Shown: piece by piece, positions 17,430-26,403 of the stretch | Numbering within the stretch: position 1 is the stretch's first letter | Layout: each line of letters opens with the position of its first letter | Origin: Flavobacteriaceae bacterium | GTDB lineage: Bacteria > Bacteroidota > Bacteroidia > Flavobacteriales > Flavobacteriaceae | Assembly: GCA_029248185.1 (NCBI GenBank) | Contig: JAQWJV010000006.1 | Span: 1-35,244 of the forward strand | Reading direction: 5' to 3' | Length of the DNA stretch: 35,244 bases | Translations under genes and position numbers: made by a program | The notes under the pieces: generated by a model | Told to the model about the DNA's origin: nothing | What the model saw: the letters and a program-made list of their open reading frames with translations, nothing else | Database searches by the model: none

Positions 17430-18713
17430 CTACCCACGCAAGGGTTTCATCTTATTTTTAATTGTCTCCAATCCAAGGTTGCCAATACTGCCCAAATGAG
17501 TATGCTTTAATGTTCTATTGGGCACATAGCTACCGTTTTCAATGGCTTCACCCAGTTCACGGTAGGCATCTCGAAAGGGTTTGCCAGCAAGAACCTCTGC
17601 GTTTAGGGTATCTACACTGAAGAGGTAATCGTATTTTTTCTGGTCTGTACTGTTCTGACTTACCTGCATTTTGGGGAGGCTAAACAATAGGATGTCTAAA
17701 CAGGCTTTCAATTCCTGCACGGCATCAATCAGGGGACCTTTGGCCAATTGTAACTCCCTATGGTATCCGCTGGGTAAGTTAGAAGTCAACAAAGCCAATT
17801 GATTGGGAAGGGCTTGTAGAACATTGCATTTTCCCCGCACCAATTCAAATAAATCGGGATTCTTTTTATGAGGCATAATACTTGAGCCAGTCGTTAATTC
17901 TGCTGGGAAAGAGATGAAATCAAAGTCTTGCCCCATATAGAGACAAACATCCATGCTCATTTTTGCCAAACTACTCCCAATACTTGAGAGGGCCATAGCA
18001 GTACTTTTCTCTAATTTTCCTCTGCTCATTTGCGCAGCTACGGCATTCACTTTTAATTGTTGAAAGGCCATTAATTCGGTAGTAAGTTCTCGGTCAATGG
18101 GAAAAGCACTTCCATACCCTGCAGCACTTCCTAAGGGGTTTTGATCGGAGATTTTGAAAGCGGCTTCCCAGAAATACAAATCATCAATCAGACTTTCGGC
18201 ATAGGCAGAGAGCCACATACCAATGGAGGAAGGCATGGCAACTTGCAAATGAGTATAGCCTGGGATTAAGTCGTTTTGGTGTTTTTCTGCGAGCTCTAAT
18301 AACAAATCAAAAAGAGCAATGACCTGGGATTTAATTTCCGTCAACTCATGCTTCAGATAGAGATGCATGGCAACCAACACTTGATCATTTCGAGAACGTG
18401 CCGTATGAATTTTTTTCCCCAAATCCCCCAGTTGTTGGGTGAGGATGTGTTCTATTTTGGAATGCATGTCTTCAAACTCAGTTTCAATGGTGAAACTTCC
18501 CTTTTCAGCATCGGCTTTAAGGGTTTTTAAAACGGAACAGAGTTGATCTGCCTCTTCAGGACTAATAAGTCCAATAGTGCCTAGCATTTTAGCATGGGCC
18601 ATGGAGGCCTCACAATCGTATTGCGCTAATACTAAATCGTATTCTCGGTCTTTTCCCACCGTAAAGGAGTCTACTTTTTCGTGGGCTGCAGCCCCTTTTT
18701 GCCAAAGCTTCAT
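17430..18713 (-). CDS. argH: Argininosuccinate lyase
   Basis: Last step of arginine synthesis: splits argininosuccinate into arginine and fumarate. The 427-residue protein has the fumarase/aspartase-superfamily signature GSSIMPHKKNPD (about 275-286), which contains the mobile catalytic serine loop. It also has HTARSRNDQV near 103 and YTHLQVAMPSS near 155 with the conserved His. The all-helical tetramer layout is implied by length and motifs. It is the distal gene of the nine-gene arg operon, starting 1 base after the argE stop. Confidence 0.96.
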   Translation of the reverse strand: MKLWQKGAAAHEKVDSFTVGKDREYDLVLAQYDCEASMAHAKMLGTIGLISPEEADQLCSVLKTLKADAEKGSFTIETEFEDMHSKIEHILTQQLGDLGKKIHTARSRNDQVLVAMHLYLKHELTEIKSQVIALFDLLLELAEKHQNDLIPGYTHLQVAMPSSIGMWLSAYAESLIDDLYFWEAAFKISDQNPLGSAAGYGSAFPIDRELTTELMAFQQLKVNAVAAQMSRGKLEKSTAMALSSIGSSLAKMSMDVCLYMGQDFDFISFPAELTTGSSIMPHKKNPDLFELVRGKCNVLQALPNQLALLTSNLPSGYHRELQLAKGPLIDAVQELKACLDILLFSLPKMQVSQNSTDQKKYDYLFSVDTLNAEVLAGKPFRDAYRELGEAIENGSYVPNRTLKHTHLGSIGNLGLETIKNKMKPLRG

Positions 18714-18714
18714 A

Positions 18715-19764
18715 CTATAATATTTTTTTCAAAAGTTCAATATAAAAGGCAATACCTTCTTCAATTTCTTTAACATAAATATACTCATCTGCCGAATGCG
18801 ATCGGGTAGAATCTCCAGGACCTAATTTTAAAGAAGGACAATCCAAAGCCGCCTGATCGGAAAGAGTAGGAGAACCGTAGGTTTTTTTACCTAAGGCAAT
18901 TCCCGCTTTGACCAATGGATGATTTGCATCAATCGACGAGCTTTTTAAGCGTAAGGAACGTGCATGTACTTCACAGGGAAGAGCGTTTTTTAGATGTTGT
19001 TCAATTTCATTATTGGTATAACATTCATTAACACGAACATCAATAACAAGCTTCACCTCAGATGGAACCACATTGTGCTGACTACCTGCTTCAATTTGAG
19101 TGAGTGTTACTTTTACAGGACCCAAAACAGGAGAGACCTTGTCAAACGCAATGGATTCAAGGGCTTGAATTACTGCTGGAATCTTCATTAAGGGATTGTC
19201 CGCATTGGGATGTGCCGCATGACTTGGAGTCCCTTTGATAATGGCTTCAAATACAACTAAGCCTTTTTCTGCGATGGCTAAATCCATTAATGTGGGCTCG
19301 CCCACAATGGCAAAATCAATTTTGGGAAGTTCTTTTAACAATCCACGTAAGCTCTTTTTTCCAGCAATTTCCTCTTCTGCCGTTGCTGCCATTAGGAGAT
19401 TATACTTTGGATTGGGGTGAGCGTAATAATGGGTAAAAAGCGCGATGAGAGAAACCAAGGCACCCCCCGCATCATTACTTCCTAAACCGTATAGTTTTCC
19501 ATCAACGATATCTGGTGAAAAAGGGTCACGAGTATAGGCTTGATTGGGCTTGACTGTATCGTGATGAGAATTGAGTAAAAGGGTAGGCAATTCGGGATTA
19601 AACTGTTGGTTGGTAGCCCAAACATTGTTGTCTTGTCGTTGAAACGGAATATTGTTTTCACGAAACCAAGCTTCAATTCGATATGCAGTTTTATGCTCCT
19701 TTTCTGAAAAGGATTCAATTTGAATTAAATCTTTTAATAGTTGTATGGCTTGTTGTGTTATCAT
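18715..19764 (-). CDS. argE: M20 deacylase, acetylornithine/N-acylcitrulline deacetylase type
   Basis: A 349-residue M20 metallopeptidase-family amidohydrolase. Zinc ligand motifs are NSHHDTV near 66, GLGSNDAGGALVSL near 94 and AATAEEEIAGKKSL with the catalytic Glu near 126; a bacterial exopeptidase dimerisation domain lies between about 165 and 270. In organisms using ArgF', the acyl group is removed at the citrulline stage, so the expected substrate is N-acetyl- (or N-succinyl-) citrulline instead of acetylornithine. That is inference from the neighbouring argF' gene. It overlaps argB by 4 bases. Confidence 0.9.
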   Translation of the reverse strand: MITQQAIQLLKDLIQIESFSEKEHKTAYRIEAWFRENNIPFQRQDNNVWATNQQFNPELPTLLLNSHHDTVKPNQAYTRDPFSPDIVDGKLYGLGSNDAGGALVSLIALFTHYYAHPNPKYNLLMAATAEEEIAGKKSLRGLLKELPKIDFAIVGEPTLMDLAIAEKGLVVFEAIIKGTPSHAAHPNADNPLMKIPAVIQALESIAFDKVSPVLGPVKVTLTQIEAGSQHNVVPSEVKLVIDVRVNECYTNNEIEQHLKNALPCEVHARSLRLKSSSIDANHPLVKAGIALGKKTYGSPTLSDQAALDCPSLKLGPGDSTRSHSADEYIYVKEIEEGIAFYIELLKKIL

Positions 19765-20537
19765 TTCAACTCTAATTGGGTGTGTTTTACTTTTTCAGTG
19801 ATCATTTTTGGATTTCCTATACGCACTTGAGCAACTCCTTTTTTAAGGGCTTCAAAGCAATTGTGAATTTTAGGAAGCATCCCCGAATGGATTGTGTTTT
19901 CTCTCTTAAGGGTTTCATATAGCGAAGTATTGATTATGGGAATTACCGAATCTTCGTCTTCCACCTGCTGCAAAACACCTTTCTTTTCAAAGCAATAACT
20001 TAAGGTCACATCAAAGTGTGTAGACATTGCAATTGCAATTTCAGAAGCAATGGTATCTGCATTGGTATTGAGAAGTTGTCCCTTATTGTCATGTGTAATT
20101 GCACAACAAACTGGAGTTATATTTTGTGTAAGTAGTGTTTTGAATAAAGCATCATTAACCTGGGTTACATCCCCCACAAAGCCAAAATCTATGGGCTCTG
20201 GAGCGCGCTTTTGTGCGCTAATACTGTTCCCATCCGTACCGCTTAGTCCGAGGGCGTTACAGCCAAACGCTTGCAACTGGGCCACAATGGTTTTGTTTAA
20301 CTTACCTGCATAAAGCATACTGATGATCTCTAAATTTGCGCTATCCGTGATACGTCTTCCCTCAATGAGTTGCACGGGTATCCCTAATTTTTCGGCCATT
20401 TGTGTAGCTTCTTTTCCGCCTCCGTGTACTAAAATTTTCGCTTCTTTTATTTTAGTGAAATCAGTTAAAAAATCCTTGAGCGCCTCTCGATTCTCAATGA
20501 CATTCCCTCCAATTTTGACAATCTGTAGCTTATCCAT
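19761..20537 (-). CDS. argB: Acetylglutamate kinase
   Basis: Phosphorylates the gamma-carboxylate of N-acylglutamate with ATP, the second step of arginine synthesis. The 258-residue amino-acid-kinase fold has KIGGNVI at 7-13, VHGGGKEATQMAEKLGI near 38-54 with the conserved GGG, GLSGTDGNSISAQKR near 98, and LNTNADTIASEIA near 155. The 258-residue length lacks the N-terminal extension found in arginine-inhibited hexameric enzymes, so feedback inhibition at this step is less likely, which would put more weight on transcriptional control. It overlaps argF' by 8 bases and argE by 4. Confidence 0.94.
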   Translation of the reverse strand: MDKLQIVKIGGNVIENREALKDFLTDFTKIKEAKILVHGGGKEATQMAEKLGIPVQLIEGRRITDSANLEIISMLYAGKLNKTIVAQLQAFGCNALGLSGTDGNSISAQKRAPEPIDFGFVGDVTQVNDALFKTLLTQNITPVCCAITHDNKGQLLNTNADTIASEIAIAMSTHFDVTLSYCFEKKGVLQQVEDEDSVIPIINTSLYETLKRENTIHSGMLPKIHNCFEALKKGVAQVRIGNPKMITEKVKHTQLELK

Positions 20538-21477
20538 TTTCTAAAATTTTCTTCAAAACGACTTGAGCTGAAAAGGTTCTGTTATTTGCTTGTTCAATGA
20601 CGAGTGAATGGGCATTGTCCAATACATCATCAGCAACAACTATATTTCTTCTAACAGGTAAACAATGCATGAATTTGGCATGATTGGTTTTTTTTAACTT
20701 TTCTGCAGTAAGCATCCAAGAATCATCGGTACGTAAAATTTTCCCATAGTCTGAATAGGAACACCAGTTTTTTGCATAGACAAAATCGGCTCCTTCTAGG
20801 GCTTCTTCTTGATTGTGTATCAGAGGTGTGTTTTTCGTAATTTCTGGATTCAATTCATAGCCTTGGGGTTGAGCGATGACAAAATCAGCATCTAATTGTT
20901 GTACCATGCGCGTAAACGAGTTGGCTACCGCATGAGGTAGCGCCTTGGGGTGTGGAGCCCACGTTAAAACAATTTTAGGTCGATTTTTTGTGGCATGTTC
21001 TTTAAGTGTAATGGCATCAGCTAGGGCTTGTAAAGGATGCGCCGTGGCACTTTCCATATTCACCACAGGAATACTCGCATATTTTGCAAAATTATTCATG
21101 ACCTTTTCTGATTCATCACTTTCTTTATCTGTAAGGGATGCAAAAGCTCGAATGGCAACGATATCGCAGTATTGTGAAACTACAGCTGCTGCTTCTCTAA
21201 TGTGTTCTGAACGTAAACCACTCATTTGTGTTCCGTCTTCAAATTCTAATGCCCAAGCTTCGTTAGAAAAATTCATGATCATAGTATGAATTCCTAATTG
21301 TTGTGCTGCTTTTTGCGTACTTAAACGGGTACGTAAACTAGGGTTGAAAAACAACATACCTAAGGTTTTGTTTCTCCCAATCGTTTCAAATTGAAAAGGA
21401 TCTTTTTTTAAAGCAATGGTCTCTGTAACTACTGTGTCTAAATTGGGAAGATCGTTTAAAGTGAGGTAGTGTTTCAT
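20530..21477 (-). CDS. argF: N-acylornithine carbamoyltransferase (ArgF' / AOTCase-SOTCase type)
   Basis: Carbamoylates the acylated ornithine to N-acylcitrulline, the variant route known from Xanthomonas (N-acetyl) and Bacteroides (N-succinyl). The 315-residue chain has the carbamoyl-phosphate loop FFNPSLRTR (43-51), RAFASLTDKESDESEKVM, and the hallmark NMESATAHPLQALAD, WAPHPKALPHAVANS and HCLPVRRN. These resemble the Bacteroides succinylornithine enzyme more than ordinary ornithine carbamoyltransferase. The residue that separates the two substrates (Glu92 in the acetyl enzyme, Pro90 in the succinyl enzyme) is Ser90 here, in GLRSEHI. The acyl group is therefore open. It sits 10 bases after argD. 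Confidence 0.9.
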   Translation of the reverse strand: MKHYLTLNDLPNLDTVVTETIALKKDPFQFETIGRNKTLGMLFFNPSLRTRLSTQKAAQQLGIHTMIMNFSNEAWALEFEDGTQMSGLRSEHIREAAAVVSQYCDIVAIRAFASLTDKESDESEKVMNNFAKYASIPVVNMESATAHPLQALADAITLKEHATKNRPKIVLTWAPHPKALPHAVANSFTRMVQQLDADFVIAQPQGYELNPEITKNTPLIHNQEEALEGADFVYAKNWCSYSDYGKILRTDDSWMLTAEKLKKTNHAKFMHCLPVRRNIVVADDVLDNAHSLVIEQANNRTFSAQVVLKKILENG

Positions 21478-21487
21478 TTAACTAGGC

Positions 21488-22630
21488 TTAGTATTCTTTT
21501 ATTTTTTTTAATGCAAGTTGAAGTGCATCAAAAAAGAGGTTAAAATGTTTTTCTTGTACCGTTAATGGAGGTAAAATACGAATAAGGTTTTTGTTGCTAC
21601 TTCCACCTGTAAAAATATGGTGTGTATAAATCAACTCTTTTCTTAGAGTAGCTACTTCAAAATCAAATTCCAAACCGAGCATCAGTCCTTTTCCTTTGAT
21701 GTTTTTTAATCCTTGTATTCCTTGGGCTTTTTCTCTAAAAAAGTATTCTAATGCAATAGTTCTCTCTTGTAATTTATCTTTTTTAAGGATATCTAAAACA
21801 GCTAAAGAAGCACTACAGGCAAGATGGTTTCCACCAAATGTAGTTCCTAGCATCCCGTATTTGGCTTTTATATCGGGATGTACTAAAATCCCACCTATAG
21901 GAAAACCATTTCCCATACCTTTCGCCATGGTAATAATGTGGGGATTGATTTTATGATGCTGATAGGCAAAAAACGTCCCCGAACGACCAAATCCAGATTG
22001 TACTTCATCAGCAATCAAACAACTGCCGTATTGATTACAAAGGGATTCCATTGCAAAAATGAATTCTTCTGAGGGTTGATCTAGCCCTCCTACACCCTGA
22101 ATGGCTTCAAAAATTACCGCACAATAATCTTCCGTTTTCAAGGCTTTTGTAAGCGCTTCAATATCATTGAGGGGTAAAAAAGCAACTTCTTGCTGTTGAT
22201 TTAAAGGGGCATTAATGGACGGATTGTCAGTCACGGCAACCGCAGCTGATGTCCTTCCGTGGAACGAGTTGTGAAAGGCAATTACCTTTTTACGTTGGGT
22301 GTGAAATGACGCTAGTTTTAATGCATTTTCAATCGCTTCGGCTCCTGTACTACACAAAAATAACTCATACGAATGAAGGCAGGATTGTTCTCCAATGGCA
22401 TCTGCTAATTGCTGTTGTAAAGGGTTTTGAATGGCGTTAGAATAAAATCCAAGCTGCTCTAGTTGGTTTGTTATTTTTTGGACATAATGGGGATGTGAAT
22501 GACCTATGGAAATTACGGCATGACCGCCGTAGAGATCAAGGAATTCTGTTCCATTTTCATCATAAACATAAACGTCTTGCGCCCGAACTGGAGTAACGTC
22601 ATATAAAGGATAAACATCAAATAGTTTCAT
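21488..22630 (-). CDS. argD: Acetylornithine aminotransferase
   Basis: PLP-dependent class III aminotransferase that makes N-acylornithine from N-acylglutamate semialdehyde and glutamate. It has 380 residues when started at ATG 22630 (MKLFDVYPLYDVTPV); an in-frame upstream ATG at 22678 would overlap proC by 41 bases and adds an atypical tail. It has AHSFHGRT-like HNSFHGRTSAAVAVT, FEAIQGVGGLDQPS, LIADEVQSGFGRSGTFFA, and the PLP lysine K237 in ITMAKGMGNGFPIGG. It follows proC after 7 bases. It could also serve the succinylated pathway. Confidence 0.94.
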   Translation of the reverse strand: MKLFDVYPLYDVTPVRAQDVYVYDENGTEFLDLYGGHAVISIGHSHPHYVQKITNQLEQLGFYSNAIQNPLQQQLADAIGEQSCLHSYELFLCSTGAEAIENALKLASFHTQRKKVIAFHNSFHGRTSAAVAVTDNPSINAPLNQQQEVAFLPLNDIEALTKALKTEDYCAVIFEAIQGVGGLDQPSEEFIFAMESLCNQYGSCLIADEVQSGFGRSGTFFAYQHHKINPHIITMAKGMGNGFPIGGILVHPDIKAKYGMLGTTFGGNHLACSASLAVLDILKKDKLQERTIALEYFFREKAQGIQGLKNIKGKGLMLGLEFDFEVATLRKELIYTHHIFTGGSSNKNLIRILPPLTVQEKHFNLFFDALQLALKKIKEY

Positions 22631-22637
22631 CGATTTT

Positions 22638-23432
22638 TTATTGTTTTGCGATATCGTTAATCTTATTAAAGGAAGCATTCAAACCTTTGATCAGGGAAGA
22701 ACTTAATCCTTGATGCTCCATTTCATTTAATCCAGTAATGGTACACCCTCTTGGGGTCGTTACTCGATCAATCTCTTCTTCGGGATGACTGCCTGTTTCG
22801 ATAAGCAAGCTTGCTGCTCCCATGGCTGTTTGCATGGACATTTTTAAGGCTATGTCAGCATCAAACCCCAATTGTACTCCTCCTTGGGTGGTCGCACGAA
22901 TCAAACGCATCCAAAAAGCAATTCCACTGGCGCACAGCACGGTAGAGGCTTGCATCAGTTTTTCTTCGATAGTGAGCGTCGTTCCCAAGCCATTGTAGAT
23001 GGCCTCAGCAATAGGAAGACTCTTTTTACCTACTGCATTACTGCATAAACAAGTCATTGATTTACCTACTGAGATCGCTGTATTGGGCATCGATCGAATA
23101 ACAGGATACTCCGATCCAATTTGAGATTCCATTCGCTCAATAGCGTACCCTGTGATTGTAGAAATAATGACGTGTTTGTCCGTTAAAATAGGTTTGATTT
23201 CTTCTAAAATCGAATCAAACTGATTGGGCTGCACGGCAAAGATCAGGACGTCAGAGTGGGTAACCGCCTCCTTGTTGTCTTGGGTAAGAAATACATTTTT
23301 GTATTCTTTCCAACTGGAAAGGGAGTCTAGATTTCTTTTAGTCAGGTAAAGGGTAGTATAGGTATTGTTGATTACCAATCCTTTGGCAATGCTTAATCCT
23401 AAATTTCCAGTTCCAATGATGGCTATTTTCAT
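22638..23432 (-). CDS. proC: Pyrroline-5-carboxylate reductase
   Basis: Makes proline by NAD(P)H reduction of 1-pyrroline-5-carboxylate. The 264-residue protein has the Rossmann motif IGTGNLGLSIAKGL at 5-18, IRSMPNTAISVGKSMTCLC near 112, and the ProC C-terminal signature in two parts: HPEEEIDRVTTPRGCTITGL, then EMEHQGLSSSLIKGL. The usual GG of the TPGGCT signature is RG here. A proline gene inside the arg operon is unusual by enterobacterial standards and suggests shared control of two glutamate-derived amino acids. It lies between argC (11-base gap) and argD (7-base gap). Confidence 0.92.
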   Translation of the reverse strand: MKIAIIGTGNLGLSIAKGLVINNTYTTLYLTKRNLDSLSSWKEYKNVFLTQDNKEAVTHSDVLIFAVQPNQFDSILEEIKPILTDKHVIISTITGYAIERMESQIGSEYPVIRSMPNTAISVGKSMTCLCSNAVGKKSLPIAEAIYNGLGTTLTIEEKLMQASTVLCASGIAFWMRLIRATTQGGVQLGFDADIALKMSMQTAMGAASLLIETGSHPEEEIDRVTTPRGCTITGLNEMEHQGLSSSLIKGLNASFNKINDIAKQ

Positions 23433-23443
23433 ATCAATTTATT

Positions 23444-24415
23444 TTAAAAAATGGTGGCTTTTAGCTGAATACCGAGGTTTTCTTCCCAGCCCATGAGTAT
23501 GTTGGTGTTTTGTATGGCTTGTCCTGAAGCTCCTTTTACAAGGTTATCAATGACACTTGTGATGAGTAATGTATTTTCGTATTTGTGTAAGTGAAGAAAG
23601 CAAAAGTTGGTATTTACAACCGATTTCAAACTGATTTCTTCATCAGAAATTTGAGTAAAAGGATGGGAAGCATAGTACTTTTGATACAGTGCCTTAGCTT
23701 GTTCCAACGAACCTTCAAACGGGGTGTAGGCAGTTGCAAAAATTCCGCGTGTAAAGTCTCCTCTTTGAGGCATAAAAAATAACTTACTGGGTGCTTTTAG
23801 TTGCTGTAAACTTTGATGAATTTCTCCTAAATGTTGATGAGTGAAGGGTTTATACCAAGAAAGGTTGTTGTTTCTCCAGCTAAAATGACTGGTAGCACTC
23901 AGTCCAACGCCTGCCCCTGTACTTCCTGTTGTTGCATTGACATGGACGGCGTCTTTGATTAGATTGTTCTTGGCCAAAGGGAGCAATGCCAACTGTATTG
24001 CAGTAGCAAAACAGCCTGGATTGGCAATGGCTGTTGCTTTTTCAATCTCTTCTCTTTGCAACTCAGGCAATCCGTATACGAATTGCTTTCCTCCAAATTC
24101 GCGATCCTTATGAAGTCTAAAGTCATTTCCCAGATCGATAATGATTGTTTTTTCTGAAAAAGAATAGTTTTCCAAAAACGCACGAGAATTTCCATGACCT
24201 AAACATAAGTAAAGCAGATCAATTTCTGGATTTACGGTATCAGTAAAGTTTAAGTTTAAACTTCCAAGTAGATCAGGATGGGCGGTTGTTACGGCTTTTC
24301 CGGCTCGGGTAGTGCTGTAAACAAAGTCAAGTTTAAGGGCAGGATGATGTATTACCAACCGGATGAGTTCCCCTCCGGTATATCCTGATCCTCCAATAAT
24401 TCCGACGCTTTTCAT
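23444..24415 (-). CDS. argC: N-acetyl-gamma-glutamyl-phosphate reductase
   Basis: Reduces N-acylglutamyl phosphate to the semialdehyde with NADPH. 323 residues, with nucleotide-binding GGSGYTGGELIRLV at 8-21, the catalytic Cys135 in ANPGCFATAI, GSTGAGVGLSATSHFSWRNN near 164, and HLGEIHQSL near 200. This is the shorter argC type. It overlaps the argG stop by 4 bases, and proC follows after 11 bases. Confidence 0.94.
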   Translation of the reverse strand: MKSVGIIGGSGYTGGELIRLVIHHPALKLDFVYSTTRAGKAVTTAHPDLLGSLNLNFTDTVNPEIDLLYLCLGHGNSRAFLENYSFSEKTIIIDLGNDFRLHKDREFGGKQFVYGLPELQREEIEKATAIANPGCFATAIQLALLPLAKNNLIKDAVHVNATTGSTGAGVGLSATSHFSWRNNNLSWYKPFTHQHLGEIHQSLQQLKAPSKLFFMPQRGDFTRGIFATAYTPFEGSLEQAKALYQKYYASHPFTQISDEEISLKSVVNTNFCFLHLHKYENTLLITSVIDNLVKGASGQAIQNTNILMGWEENLGIQLKATIF

Positions 24416-25602
24416 TTTTCTTGGTTTAGGTGTTGGTAAATTTTTGTTGCATTGGCGGTTAATTTAATAAAGCCCTTAGCTTCTTCAGCTGTCCATCCTT
24501 TGTTCATTTCTCCATAACTTCCAAATTCAGCTTGCATGAGATCGTTTGGAGATTGGATTCCCAGAAGTTCAAATCGGTAAGGATGTAGTTTGATAAATAC
24601 AGTTCCCGTGACTTGTTTTTGGCTACTTTCCATAAAAGCTTCCATGTCTCGCATCACAGGATCAAGGTAATGTCCTTCATGCAATTGCATTCCATAGAAA
24701 TTTGCCAATTGTTCTTTTTGAAATTGTTGCCATTTACTTAGAGTATGCTTTTCTAAAAGATGGTGTGCTTTAATAATTAGCGTGGGTGCAGCCGCTTCAA
24801 AACCGACACGACCTTTAATTCCAATGATGGTATCTCCCACATGAATATCACGTCCAATAGCGTATTGTTTTGCTCGTTCTTGTAGGTTTTGAATTAATGC
24901 TACGGGCGACCCTGTTTCGCCATTTACTTCAGTTAATTCTCCATGGGTAAATTTTAAGGAAACGGTTTCTTCTTTTTCTTTTTTTAAGGGACTAGGGTAT
25001 GCAGAATCAGGGAGGGGCAAATCAGAGGTTAAGGTTTCTGACCCTCCAACGCTCGTTCCCCACAAGCCTTGATTAATGGAATATTTAGCTTTTTCCCATG
25101 GCACATCAATTCCTTGTGTTTTTAAATATTCAATTTCATCTTCTCTTGAAAGCTGATTATCTCTGATTAAAGTGATGATTTTGATTTCTGGTGCCATAAC
25201 CTGAAAGATCATGTCAAACCGCACTTGATCATTTCCTGCTCCCGTGCTACCATGAGCTATATAGGTTGCGCCAATGGCTTTTGCATAAGTCACAATTTCT
25301 ACGGCTTGAATGATGCGTTCTGCACTTACGGAAAGCGGATAGGTATTGTTTCGCAGCACATTGCCGTAAATGAGATATTTTACAATCTTGTCGTAAAAGG
25401 GATCTAAAGCATCTATGTTTTTGTACAGATGAGCTCCCATTTGGTATGCTTTCTTTTCAATATCTTGAATTTCTATTTTGGAAAATCCACCGGTATTGAT
25501 ACTCACGGCATGAACCTCATAGCCTTCTTTAGATAGTTTTCTAAGAGAATACGAAGTGTCTAATCCTCCGCTGTAAGCCAAAACTAATTTGGAGTCCTTC
25601 AT
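24412..25602 (-). CDS. argG: Argininosuccinate synthase
   Basis: Joins citrulline and aspartate using ATP, the penultimate step of arginine synthesis. It has 396 residues. The N-type ATP pyrophosphatase loop is AYSGGLDTSYSLRKL (9-23), followed by YIAHGSTGAGNDQVRFD near 115 and KYSINQGLWGTSVGGSE near 174. The C-terminal region (TGTVFIKLHPYRFELLGIQS and others) forms the synthetase oligomerisation part. It is second in the operon, overlapping the GNAT gene and argC by 4 bases each, which signals translational coupling. Confidence 0.95.
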   Translation of the reverse strand: MKDSKLVLAYSGGLDTSYSLRKLSKEGYEVHAVSINTGGFSKIEIQDIEKKAYQMGAHLYKNIDALDPFYDKIVKYLIYGNVLRNNTYPLSVSAERIIQAVEIVTYAKAIGATYIAHGSTGAGNDQVRFDMIFQVMAPEIKIITLIRDNQLSREDEIEYLKTQGIDVPWEKAKYSINQGLWGTSVGGSETLTSDLPLPDSAYPSPLKKEKEETVSLKFTHGELTEVNGETGSPVALIQNLQERAKQYAIGRDIHVGDTIIGIKGRVGFEAAAPTLIIKAHHLLEKHTLSKWQQFQKEQLANFYGMQLHEGHYLDPVMRDMEAFMESSQKQVTGTVFIKLHPYRFELLGIQSPNDLMQAEFGSYGEMNKGWTAEEAKGFIKLTANATKIYQHLNQEK

Positions 25603-26210
25603 GATTTATTCTTTTTTAATAATAGGGTTTCTTTAATTTGTTTTAAACGACGGGATACCTTTTCGTTAAAAGGTTTGGATGTTGATTTTTTATTTGGATC
25701 ATATAACATTCCTGTGCAAAGACACATTTGGCGTTCGGTACGGGTAAGCACATCGTAATTCTTACACGTTTGACATCCTCTCCAGAATTCAGGATCATCG
25801 GTAAGTTCAGAAAAATGGACGGGTTTGTACCCCAATTCATAATTGATTTTCATTACGGGCATTCCTGTAGTAATTCCAAAGACTTTTGCTTCGGGGTATT
25901 TTTTCAAGGAAAGTTCGAAAACTTCTTTCTTAATTTTTTTTGCAAGTCCTTTTCCTCTGTGGTCAGGGGCTACAATAAGTCCAGAATGAGCAACATATTT
26001 TCCATGCCCCCAAATTTCGATATAACAAAACCCAACAAATTGGTCGTTGTCTATTGCAATTACGGCATTGCCGTTTTCAATTTTGCCTGCTATGTACTCA
26101 GGGGTTCTTCGGGCAATTCCAGTGCCTCTATTTTTGGCTGATTCATCAATACATTGACTGATGTTTTTAGCATATATAATATGTTCCGCTTTGGCGCGTA
26201 AAATTTTCAT
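25599..26210 (-). CDS. GNAT acetyltransferase with cysteine-rich tail, candidate acylglutamate synthase
   Basis: 203 residues. Residues 1-135 are a GNAT fold; the acetyl-CoA pyrophosphate loop is VAPDHRGKGLA (80-90), preceded by strand AHSGLIV, and GYKPVHF closes the fold. Residues 140-170 carry four cysteines in C146-x2-C149 and C163-x-C165 spacing (GCQTCKNY...MCLCTGMLYD), which could bind a metal or form disulfides. The tail is basic. It is the first gene of the arg operon and overlaps argG by 4 bases. No argA or argJ is present, so acylation of glutamate is the missing step. That role is inference from context. Other GNAT substrates, or a regulatory role, remain possible. Confidence 0.78.
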   Translation of the reverse strand: MKILRAKAEHIIYAKNISQCIDESAKNRGTGIARRTPEYIAGKIENGNAVIAIDNDQFVGFCYIEIWGHGKYVAHSGLIVAPDHRGKGLAKKIKKEVFELSLKKYPEAKVFGITTGMPVMKINYELGYKPVHFSELTDDPEFWRGCQTCKNYDVLTRTERQMCLCTGMLYDPNKKSTSKPFNEKVSRRLKQIKETLLLKKNKS

Positions 26211-26281
26211 GATTGAAAGGTAATAAGAGAAAAAATAGTTTGTTCGAGAAGGGAGAAGGGCACACCGTACTCCATAAATAA

Positions 26282-26365
26282 TTACACCCCTACGGGGCGA
26301 CGAGGAAAACTGCGCAACGGAAGAACAGTCGCGTGGATTAAATGTATTTTCTCAGTTTTGAACAT
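26282..26365 (-). CDS. Candidate arginine leader peptide (27 aa)
   Basis: A small ORF from ATG 26363-26365 to TAA 26282-26284, 71 bases ahead of the operon's first gene. It begins MFKTEKIHLIHATV and ends LRSFPRRPVGV. Three of its last ten residues are Arg (R18, R22, R23), encoded CGC and CGT CGC. The codons right after R23 (CCC GTA GGG G) form the CCCC-GTA-GGGG hairpin. A stretch GC-rich compared with its AT-rich surroundings coincides with the ORF's second half. This is the layout of a translation-sensing attenuator: ribosomes stalled at Arg codons would change folding of the leader. I see no classical terminator hairpin directly before the T6 run at 26230-26235, so the exact mechanism is open. 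Confidence 0.55.
   Translation of the reverse strand: MFKTEKIHLIHATVLPLRSFPRRPVGV
26285..26298 (-). promoter_or_regulatory. Hairpin at the end of the arg leader ORF
   Basis: CCCC-GTA-GGGG on the minus strand, a 4-bp all-GC stem with a 3-base loop in an otherwise AT-rich region. An outer pairing GCGAC / GTCGC also exists around 26297-26332. Either could be part of an attenuator that responds to ribosome position. Confidence 0.35.
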
Positions 26366-26372
26366 AACACTG

Positions 26373-26403
26373 CAAAAATGGGGTATTTTTTTAACACAGC
26401 AAA
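26373..26403 (-). promoter_or_regulatory. Candidate promoter of the arg leader and operon
   Basis: On the minus strand TTTG (26400-26403), 19 bases, then CATTTTTG (26373-26380), one mismatch from TAnnTTTG. The predicted transcription start falls at or next to the leader-peptide ATG at 26365, so the mRNA may be almost leaderless. Confidence 0.4.

What the first reader, a model, noticed from the sequence alone, without database searches (positions are those of the whole stretch)
26282..26365. Unannotated 27-codon leader ORF with Arg codons ahead of the arginine operon
Seen directly: an ATG-to-TAA ORF 71 bases before the first operon gene, ending LRSFPRRPVGV with CGC, then CGT CGC, next to a CCCC-GTA-GGGG hairpin in a GC-rich island. 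A candidate promoter places transcription start at its ATG, so it may be translated from a nearly leaderless mRNA. Known: leader peptides rich in the pathway's amino acid control attenuation in Proteobacteria and Actinobacteria. I do not know of a described arginine example in Flavobacteriaceae. Inferred: ribosome stalling at Arg codons controls the operon.
Basis: partly seen in the sequence, partly recalled or inferred. Interest (0 to 1): 0.72.

Follow-up and report, generated by a model that had tools for sequence, protein, structure and literature searches.

The report
Arginine-sensing leader RNA of flavobacteria
In front of the arginine-making genes of many marine flavobacteria lies a short RNA leader that encodes a tiny arginine-rich peptide and carries a conserved RNA hairpin, and it probably tells the cell whether it has enough arginine, in a family where the usual arginine repressor is almost always absent.

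Summary
The 27-codon ORF sits behind a flavobacterial promoter and ahead of GNAT-argG-argC-proC-argD-argF-argB-argE-argH. It is conserved in the genus and in the family Flavobacteriaceae. In 94 family loci outside the genus, Arg codons fill 37% of the last eight codon positions in the leader frame, against 5% and 1% in the other frames; 264 of 281 are CGC/CGT. A covariance model finds the element in 188 of 299 family genomes; of 20 checked genomes without it, 19 lack the GNAT gene. ArgR is found in 1 of 199.

Its stem covaries strongly in the family while its apical GGUGNGUCC is nearly invariant. It matches no Rfam family.

This is not a classical attenuator: no strong terminator and no mutually exclusive antiterminator, whereas the his operon of the genus has a His-codon leader and a strong terminator. 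Best reading: ribosomes stalled on CGY codons keep P1 open; when they leave, P1 and P2 form a repressing unit. Arg sensing is well supported by comparison; the output step is inferred.

The parts
26400..26403 (-). -33 promoter element TTTG (inferred)
   Evidence: sequence; spacing of 19 nt to the -7 box; consensus of the -7 box from PMC9723704 (passages); the -33 element is recalled
26373..26380 (-). -7 promoter box CATTTTTG (5 of 6 fixed positions of TAnnTTTG); start of transcription inferred near 26368
   Evidence: such a box lies 7 nt before the leader start in 27 of 33 genus loci
26282..26365 (-). leader ORF, 27 codons, MFKTEKIHLIHATVLPLRSFPRRPVGV*, nearly leaderless if the start of transcription is as inferred
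26312..26314 (-). upstream Arg codon CGC (position -5 before the P1 anchor)
   Evidence: Arg at -5 in 40 of 94 family loci and 23 of 33 genus loci
26297..26302 (-). Arg codons CGT CGC at the 5' edge of P1
   Evidence: codon -1 is Arg in 87 of 94 family loci and 26 of 33 genus loci
26285..26299 (-). hairpin P1, CGCCCC-GTA-GGGGTG; the commonest family form is CGCCC-GTAA-GGGT, with the leader's stop codon in the loop
   Evidence: form CGCCCGTAAGGGT in 52 of 94 family loci; -9.1 kcal/mol folded with its neighbours
26252..26273 (-). hairpin P2, GGAGTA-C-GGTGTGCCC-TTCTCC: 6-bp stem (one U-U mismatch in this genus), bulge, conserved apical part; covariation is seen in the family
   Evidence: weak by energy in the window itself (-5.2 kcal/mol)
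26258..26266 (-). conserved apical motif of P2, GGUGUGCCC here, GGUGNGUCC in the family
25599..26210 (-). first operon gene, GNAT acetyltransferase
   Evidence: Pfam Acetyltransf_7 / Acetyltransf_1
17430..25602 (-). rest of the arginine operon: argG, argC, proC, argD, argF-type N-acetylornithine carbamoyltransferase, argB, argE/dapE-type deacylase, argH

Best explanation
The locus is an arginine-responsive leader RNA. A ribosome starts at the 5' end of the nearly leaderless mRNA and translates a peptide with no conserved body that ends in CGC/CGT codons. When charged tRNA-Arg is scarce, it stalls on these codons and its footprint keeps P1 open. When arginine is ample, it runs to the stop codon inside or just behind P1 and leaves; P1 then folds at a fixed spacing (26-28 nt from start to start) in front of P2. 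P1 plus P2 act as one repressing unit for the downstream operon, most likely through premature termination or decay of the mRNA, with P2's apical motif recognised by a trans-acting factor. Shown by comparison: leader ORF, Arg-codon run, P1, P2, their spacing and their link to the arg operon. Inferred: stalling, its direction, and the whole output step.
For: Frame-specific Arg codons: 281 of 752 codon sites (37%) in frame 0 against 38 and 7 in frames 1 and 2, with stops within 15 codons in 0, 55 and 52 of 94 loci. 264 of 281 Arg codons are CGT/CGC, although AGA is the commonest Arg codon of the window genes counted (96 of 297). P2: 97.7% of cells paired in 93 loci against 78.4% with 3' arms swapped, and the five top covarying column pairs of the whole alignment are P2 stem pairs. 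P1 start to P2 start 26-28 nt in 113 of 127. R2 model in 188 of 299 family genomes; 19 of 20 checked genomes without it also lack GNAT. ArgR domain in 1 of 199 family genomes. A second upstream Arg-rich ORF in 32 of 94 loci, 0 of 94 in the reverse-strand control. Masking a ribosome on the Arg codons abolishes P1 (by construction).
Against: No expression, TSS or ribosome data. First Arg codons often lie at -5/-6 (40 and 37 of 94); a ribosome stalled there would end about at the base of P1 and need not open it, so the direction of the P1 effect is uncertain. A ribosome at the stop codon also covers P1. Masking does not switch P2. In the window's own sequence P2 is poorly predicted: pairing probability 0.08 in the free RNA, 0.29-0.55 with a masked ribosome, and the genus as a whole has a mean of 0.46 in the free RNA. 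The P2 motif has no identified partner; L182 of G070 keeps a P2-like stem without it and L139 lacks P2. Genus g128 keeps the GNAT gene without a clear element. Peptide-wide pN/pS is not clearly lower than in control frames. L004 of the same genus has one Arg codon left in the run.
Confidence: 0.6

Rival explanations
1. Classical transcription attenuator: P1 (with its U-rich downstream stretch) or P2 is an intrinsic terminator that a stalled ribosome prevents through an antiterminator.
For: The his operon in the same genus has a leader ORF with His codons followed by a long stem with a U run, so the lineage uses this mechanism. P1 is followed by a U-rich stretch, and 49 of 127 loci pass a lax terminator test (23 of 33 genus loci, 26 of 94 others), 1 of them with a site ending at or after the end of P2 (one search printed the total as 126, one too few).
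Against: P1 folds at -9.1 against -15.2 kcal/mol for the his terminator of the same genome; no U run follows P2 and the tail is A-rich; ribosome masking does not switch P2; no covarying alternative helix appears; the leader ORF overlaps P1 itself.
Confidence: 0.15
2. P2 is a ligand-binding aptamer (arginine or a pathway metabolite) and the leader ORF is a second, independent sensor: a leader peptide and a small riboswitch in one RNA.
For: Nearly invariant 9-nt apical motif on a covarying stem with a bulge, the usual look of specific recognition; not explained by pairing with P1 (L079 and L090 change the P1 arm but keep GGUG) or with the GNAT start.
Against: Only about 22-24 nt, small for an aptamer; no expression platform found; a protein or RNA partner explains it equally well.
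Confidence: 0.1
3. Nascent-chain arrest: the RRP-stop peptide stalls the ribosome at termination in response to a free metabolite, as TnaC or SpeFL do (recalled).
For: In 71 of 94 family loci outside the genus the peptide as read ends Arg-Arg-Pro-stop.
Against: The Pro is dictated by the P1 stem and is absent from the end in L079, L090 and L126; in the window's genus 24 of 33 end RRPx[G/W]V; no purifying selection was detected on the peptide body.
Confidence: 0.08
4. The conserved block is coding: a second short ORF (MEYG.PFSL...) that overlaps the GNAT start in some genomes explains the conservation of the P2 region.
For: In the window an ATG at 26275 opens a 22-codon ORF whose stop overlaps the GNAT start (read by eye), and many genus members keep it.
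Against: In-frame stops in L011 and L029 and a lost ATG in L021; in the family the stem changes by compensatory pairs while only the apical part stays.
Confidence: 0.02

Closest known systems
Salmonella speF leader, orf34 (PMC6386406; abstract seen)
   Same: Short leader ORF with consecutive Arg codons; ribosome pausing changes downstream RNA structure and mRNA fate; Rho and RNase G involved instead of an intrinsic terminator.
   Different: Controls ornithine decarboxylase, not arginine synthesis; enterobacterial; no P2-like hairpin is mentioned in the abstract.
LEU element and cys leader peptides of Actinobacteria (PMC1262725; passages seen)
   Different: Leucine and cysteine; [quoted passage not shown] no such pairing was found here.
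S. aureus rbfL (PMC13009471; passages seen)
   Same: Arg codons of a leader peptide sense arginine limitation.
   Different: AGA/AGG codons; blocks the ribosome-binding site of a biofilm regulator; here CGY codons and an arginine operon.
Classical his attenuator of the same genus
   Same: Short ORF with the pathway's codons ahead of the biosynthetic operon.
   Different: His has a strong terminator with a U run; arg has none and has P2.
Structured 5' elements of Flavobacterium psychrophilum (PMC9723704; passages and section 19 seen)
   Same: Reports strong clues for leader-peptide attenuation upstream of amino-acid biosynthesis operons in this family; conserved 5' elements at pheA and hisG among others.
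   Different: Arginine is not named in that section; its supplement could not be read; genus g128, taken to be Flavobacterium (recalled), shows no clear arg element.

Membership tests
Ribosome-mediated transcription attenuator (trp/his type) | Short translated ORF rich in codons of the pathway's amino acid between promoter and first gene | tested here: met
   Arg codons frame-specific and conserved; translation itself not shown
Ribosome-mediated transcription attenuator (trp/his type) | Strong intrinsic terminator ahead of the first gene | tested here: not met
   P1 is weak and passes only a lax test, in 49 of 127 loci; 1 locus has a site at or after the end of P2; his locus as positive control
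Ribosome-mediated transcription attenuator (trp/his type) | Mutually exclusive antiterminator helix | tested here: not met
   no alternative covarying helix; masking a ribosome does not switch P2
Leader-peptide cis-regulators without intrinsic terminator (speF orf34, LEU, cys leaders) | Codon run plus conserved downstream RNA structure | tested here: met
Leader-peptide cis-regulators without intrinsic terminator (speF orf34, LEU, cys leaders) | Expression responds to the amino acid through the codons | not testable with these tools
   needs reporters
Nascent-chain arrest peptides (TnaC, SpeFL) | Conserved peptide sequence beyond the codon run | tested here: not met
   pN/pS 0.905 against 0.833 and 1.092 in the other frames for 32 genus leaders
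Any RNA family of Rfam 15 | Covariance-model match | tested here: not met
   no hit at gathering score in the leader or in 4 family loci; only 5 hits far below gathering score at E 2 to 8.5
ArgR-type DNA repression | ArgR encoded in the genome | tested here: not met
   1 of 199 family genomes, a borderline match, and not G000 (89% complete)

The most novel reading that the evidence does not exclude
P2 is a new class of small recognition hairpin: its GGUGNGUCC motif is bound by a specific trans-acting factor or ligand, and it is set at a fixed distance from a ribosome-gated hairpin (P1), so that the leader integrates tRNA-Arg charging with a second signal. In this family the unit stands in for the ArgR repressor, and about a third of the loci examined add a second Arg-rich leader ORF in tandem.
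Probability: 0.35. Interest if true: 0.8.

Novelty: new variant of a known kind. Interest (0 to 1): 0.64.

Why it matters
It would give the Flavobacteriaceae, a major family of marine bacteria, an arginine control system at RNA level where ArgR was found in 1 of 199 genomes, and a compact RNA motif with a ready-made set of family variants for experiments. It also shows a leader-peptide design with the stop codon often inside a hairpin loop and no strong terminator, which bears on how ribosome stalling is read out in bacteria that make little use of Shine-Dalgarno sequences.

Tried and rejected
Second short ORF over P2 (MEYG...): rejected, broken in L011, L029 and L021 and explained by P2. Outer helix P0 between the Arg codons and GACGA downstream: seen in single-sequence folds of some genus members, no support in the family. 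Upstream hairpin CGCAAC/GTTGCG in the genus: mean longest helix 5.06 against 4.76 with arms swapped, maximum 5.24 of 300 swaps, so not supported. Pairing of the Arg run or P2 loop with the GNAT start, or of the Arg run or P1's 3' arm with the tail: not better than swapped arms (117 loci). P2 loop with Arg codons/P1 arm (GGUG:CGCC): possible in 117 of 127, but not followed in L079 and L090 where the arm changed. Sigma-70 scan was the wrong promoter type. A common design with the thr operon (suggested by L146): the 29 genus thr loci whose ThrA start was found, of 30 fetched, show no such leader by eye. Purifying selection on the peptides: not found for the main leader (32 sequences); for the second ORF 0.741 against 0.800 and 0.938 (21 sequences), no clear difference.

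Rows dropped: L001 (same as L002), L012 (upstream cut) and L036 (divergent second copy) from the genus set; L032 is missing. From the family set: 12 of the 80 places fetched have neither GNAT nor argG downstream and were set aside as chance hits, L103 among them (the output was cut in the middle); L124 (runs of N, twin of L070) and L139 (P2 lost) were dropped too, and L070 also from the P2 counts. The bulge length was chosen per locus to favour pairing and the swapped control was not re-optimised, so (MAFFT alignment, 102 sequences) is the cleaner count. R2 was trained on loci from these genomes, so one search is not independent for them. In one search the start codon and box were chosen together, so its non-genus counts are loose and not used. 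The stops were picked by Arg content; fixes the frame by P1 and is the unbiased version.

Full report
What is there. The genes behind it are GNAT, argG, argC, proC, argD, an N-acetylornithine carbamoyltransferase, argB, an ArgE/DapE-type deacylase and argH. A flavobacterial promoter lies directly upstream: TTTG, 19 nt, CATTTTTG. With the -7 box at -12 to -5, as published for F. psychrophilum (PMC9723704, passages), transcription would begin about three bases before the ATG. This is inferred, not mapped.

Conservation in the genus. The GNAT protein search found the gene in 34 of 38 genomes of the genus, the window's included. Of the 35 places (two in G014), 33 upstream regions were analysed; L012 and L036 were left out, as was the duplicate L001. 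All 33 keep an ATG-started leader of 25-28 codons, counted from the ATG next to the promoter. 24 of 33 end RRPx[G/W]V. In L019 and L022 the stop falls inside P1, so the peptide ends RRP, while the hairpin stays. L004 ends SRPVGV and L009 RPRPFGV; L025 to L029 end LRYRPIGV.

Conservation in the family. A covariance model of the genus element (R1) matched 166 of 299 Flavobacteriaceae genomes at E up to 1. I read 28 of the strong loci beyond the genus (L040-L067): all 28 have argG downstream and 26 also a GNAT match. A further 80 places were fetched: 67 have GNAT, 68 have argG and 12 have neither; the 12 were set aside. After dropping L124 and L139 as well, 94 family loci and 33 genus loci remain. 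A family model (R2) finds the element in 188 of 299 family genomes (154 of 236 genera) at E up to 0.01. In 20 genomes without it (of 111), 19 also lack the GNAT gene, so most absences checked mean that the first gene of the operon is missing too. The exception, G070, has a related leader. Genus g128 keeps the GNAT gene in 8 of 8 genomes checked but shows no clear element by eye or by model (best E 0.088). In the phylum-wide sample of 296 genomes, 22 match at E up to 0.01: the 13 strong ones are all in the family, and the 9 others have E of 0.00167 or more.

Coding test. With the frame fixed by the start of P1, Arg codons fill 281 of 752 sites (37%) in the last eight codons of 94 family loci; the other frames give 38 and 7. 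A stop occurs within 15 codons upstream in 0 of 94 loci in this frame, and in 55 and 52 in the others. In the 33 genus loci the sums are 75, 21 and 3, and the stops 0, 19 and 14. Of these, 116 lie upstream of GNAT or argG; the other 3 have 62-118 bases left downstream. Their Arg frequencies are 36%, 4.7% and 2.8%, and stops occur in 0, 64 and 52 of 119. This set overlaps the first one. Of the 281 Arg codons, 264 are CGT or CGC; in the window genes counted, AGA is the commonest (96 of 297 Arg codons). The rest of the peptide is not conserved: pN/pS is 0.905 in 32 genus leaders against 0.833 and 1.092 in the other frames. That fits a codon sensor and not a functional peptide.

RNA structure. P1 has the form CGCCC-GTAA-GGGT, with the leader's stop codon in its loop, in 52 of 94 family loci, and CGCCCC-NNN-GGGGTG followed by the stop in most of the window's genus. 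P2 begins 26-28 nt after the start of P1 in 113 of 127 loci, while the distance from P2 to the GNAT start varies from 34 to 99 (117 loci). The P2 stem pairs in 97.7% of cells in 93 loci against 78.4% when 3' arms are swapped (maximum 82.1% in 1000 swaps). On a MAFFT alignment of 102 sequences, the covariation score of P1 plus P2 is 0.252 against 0.120 in shuffles (0 of 500 as high) and at most 0.109 when slid by one to three columns; most of it comes from P2, and P1 has both-side changes in only 7 cells. The five top column pairs of the whole alignment by corrected mutual information are the five variable P2 pairs. Eight of the nine apical positions, GGUGNGUCC, are the same in at least 91 of 93 loci; the remaining one is A, U or C. 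In the genus it reads GGUGNGCCC with some variation, the fifth stem pair is a U-U mismatch in 29 of 33, and the genus alone shows little covariation. By energy P2 is modest: -5.2 kcal/mol in the window, where its predicted pairing probability in the free leader is only 0.08. Rfam has no match. The motif does not follow changes in P1 (L079, L090) and shows no pairing with the GNAT start beyond swapped controls, so a trans-acting partner or ligand is the simplest account of its invariance.

A second leader ORF. In 32 of 94 family loci a further short ORF ends in an Arg run 131-149 nt before P1, for example MKNLKNKIRCTIPGLPVRSRRRF*; the reverse-strand control gives 0 of 94. This repeats the arginine signature upstream of the main leader, though its promoter was not examined.

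How it may work. The locus lacks what defines a classical attenuator. No U run follows P2, P1 is weak (-9.1 kcal/mol as folded, against -15.2 for the his terminator of the same genome), and placing a ribosome on the Arg codons or at the stop removes P1 without switching P2. A lax terminator test is passed in 49 of 127 loci, and in 1 of them by a site ending at or after the end of P2 (one search printed 126 as the total, one too few). The his operon of the same genus shows what a classical one looks like here: a leader with His codons, then a long stem with a run of T (read by eye in 29 of 30 fetched loci). I therefore favour an occupancy switch: a ribosome held on CGY codons keeps P1 open and the operon on; a ribosome that finishes and leaves lets P1 fold beside P2 and turns it off, by termination or decay. 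The direction and the output are inferred. A weak point is that many leaders have their first Arg codons five or six codons upstream, where a stalled ribosome would not cover P1.

Relation to known systems. Arg-codon leaders are known for speF in Salmonella (PMC6386406, abstract) and rbfL in S. aureus (PMC13009471, passages); leader peptides without terminators but with conserved RNA are known in Actinobacteria (PMC1262725, passages). F. psychrophilum work noted clues for leader-peptide attenuation at amino-acid operons without naming arginine in the section read (PMC9723704, section 19). My searches of the held library (listings only) showed no report of an arginine leader in this family; most subscription papers are not in it. 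ArgR (PF01316) was found in 1 of 199 family genomes, a borderline match, while the control search detects it in 9 of 14 known genomes, a Bacteroides among them.

Verdict. Observation confirmed, interpretation partly supported, a new variant of a known kind with a new conserved RNA hairpin.

Noticed in passing
L198 and 28 further loci shown, upstream of hisG (window genus): The his operon carries what looks like a classical attenuator: short leader ORF with His codons (HHHH in the window's genome), then a long stem and a run of T.
   Followed up: partly
L146 (G083:C13:179838-179913): Leader-like ORF ending TSIITMTIITPLGYIFI* with a CCCC/GGGG hairpin ahead of a ThrA-like gene: a possible Thr/Ile attenuator in another genus; not seen in the window's genus.
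   Followed up: partly
L052, L066, L060, L055, L044 and 27 other family loci, 131-149 nt before P1: Second Arg-rich short ORF (often KNKIR..., ending in an Arg run) upstream of the main leader: tandem arginine leaders.
   Followed up: partly
L176-L181 (genus g128): Same GNAT-argG genes without the element; another upstream region, with an inverted repeat TTGTCCATTGGACAA in L178: possibly different control.
   Followed up: no
L183-L186 (g128 and family f5): ATATCTAA/AGATAAAATATCT-like repeats upstream of a more distant GNAT-argG operon; may be DNA operators.
   Followed up: no
L182 (G070): Variant leader RFDFRRRLLA* with P1 and a P2-like stem (GTGATGT/ACATCAC) that has lost the GGUGNGUCC motif.
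   Followed up: no
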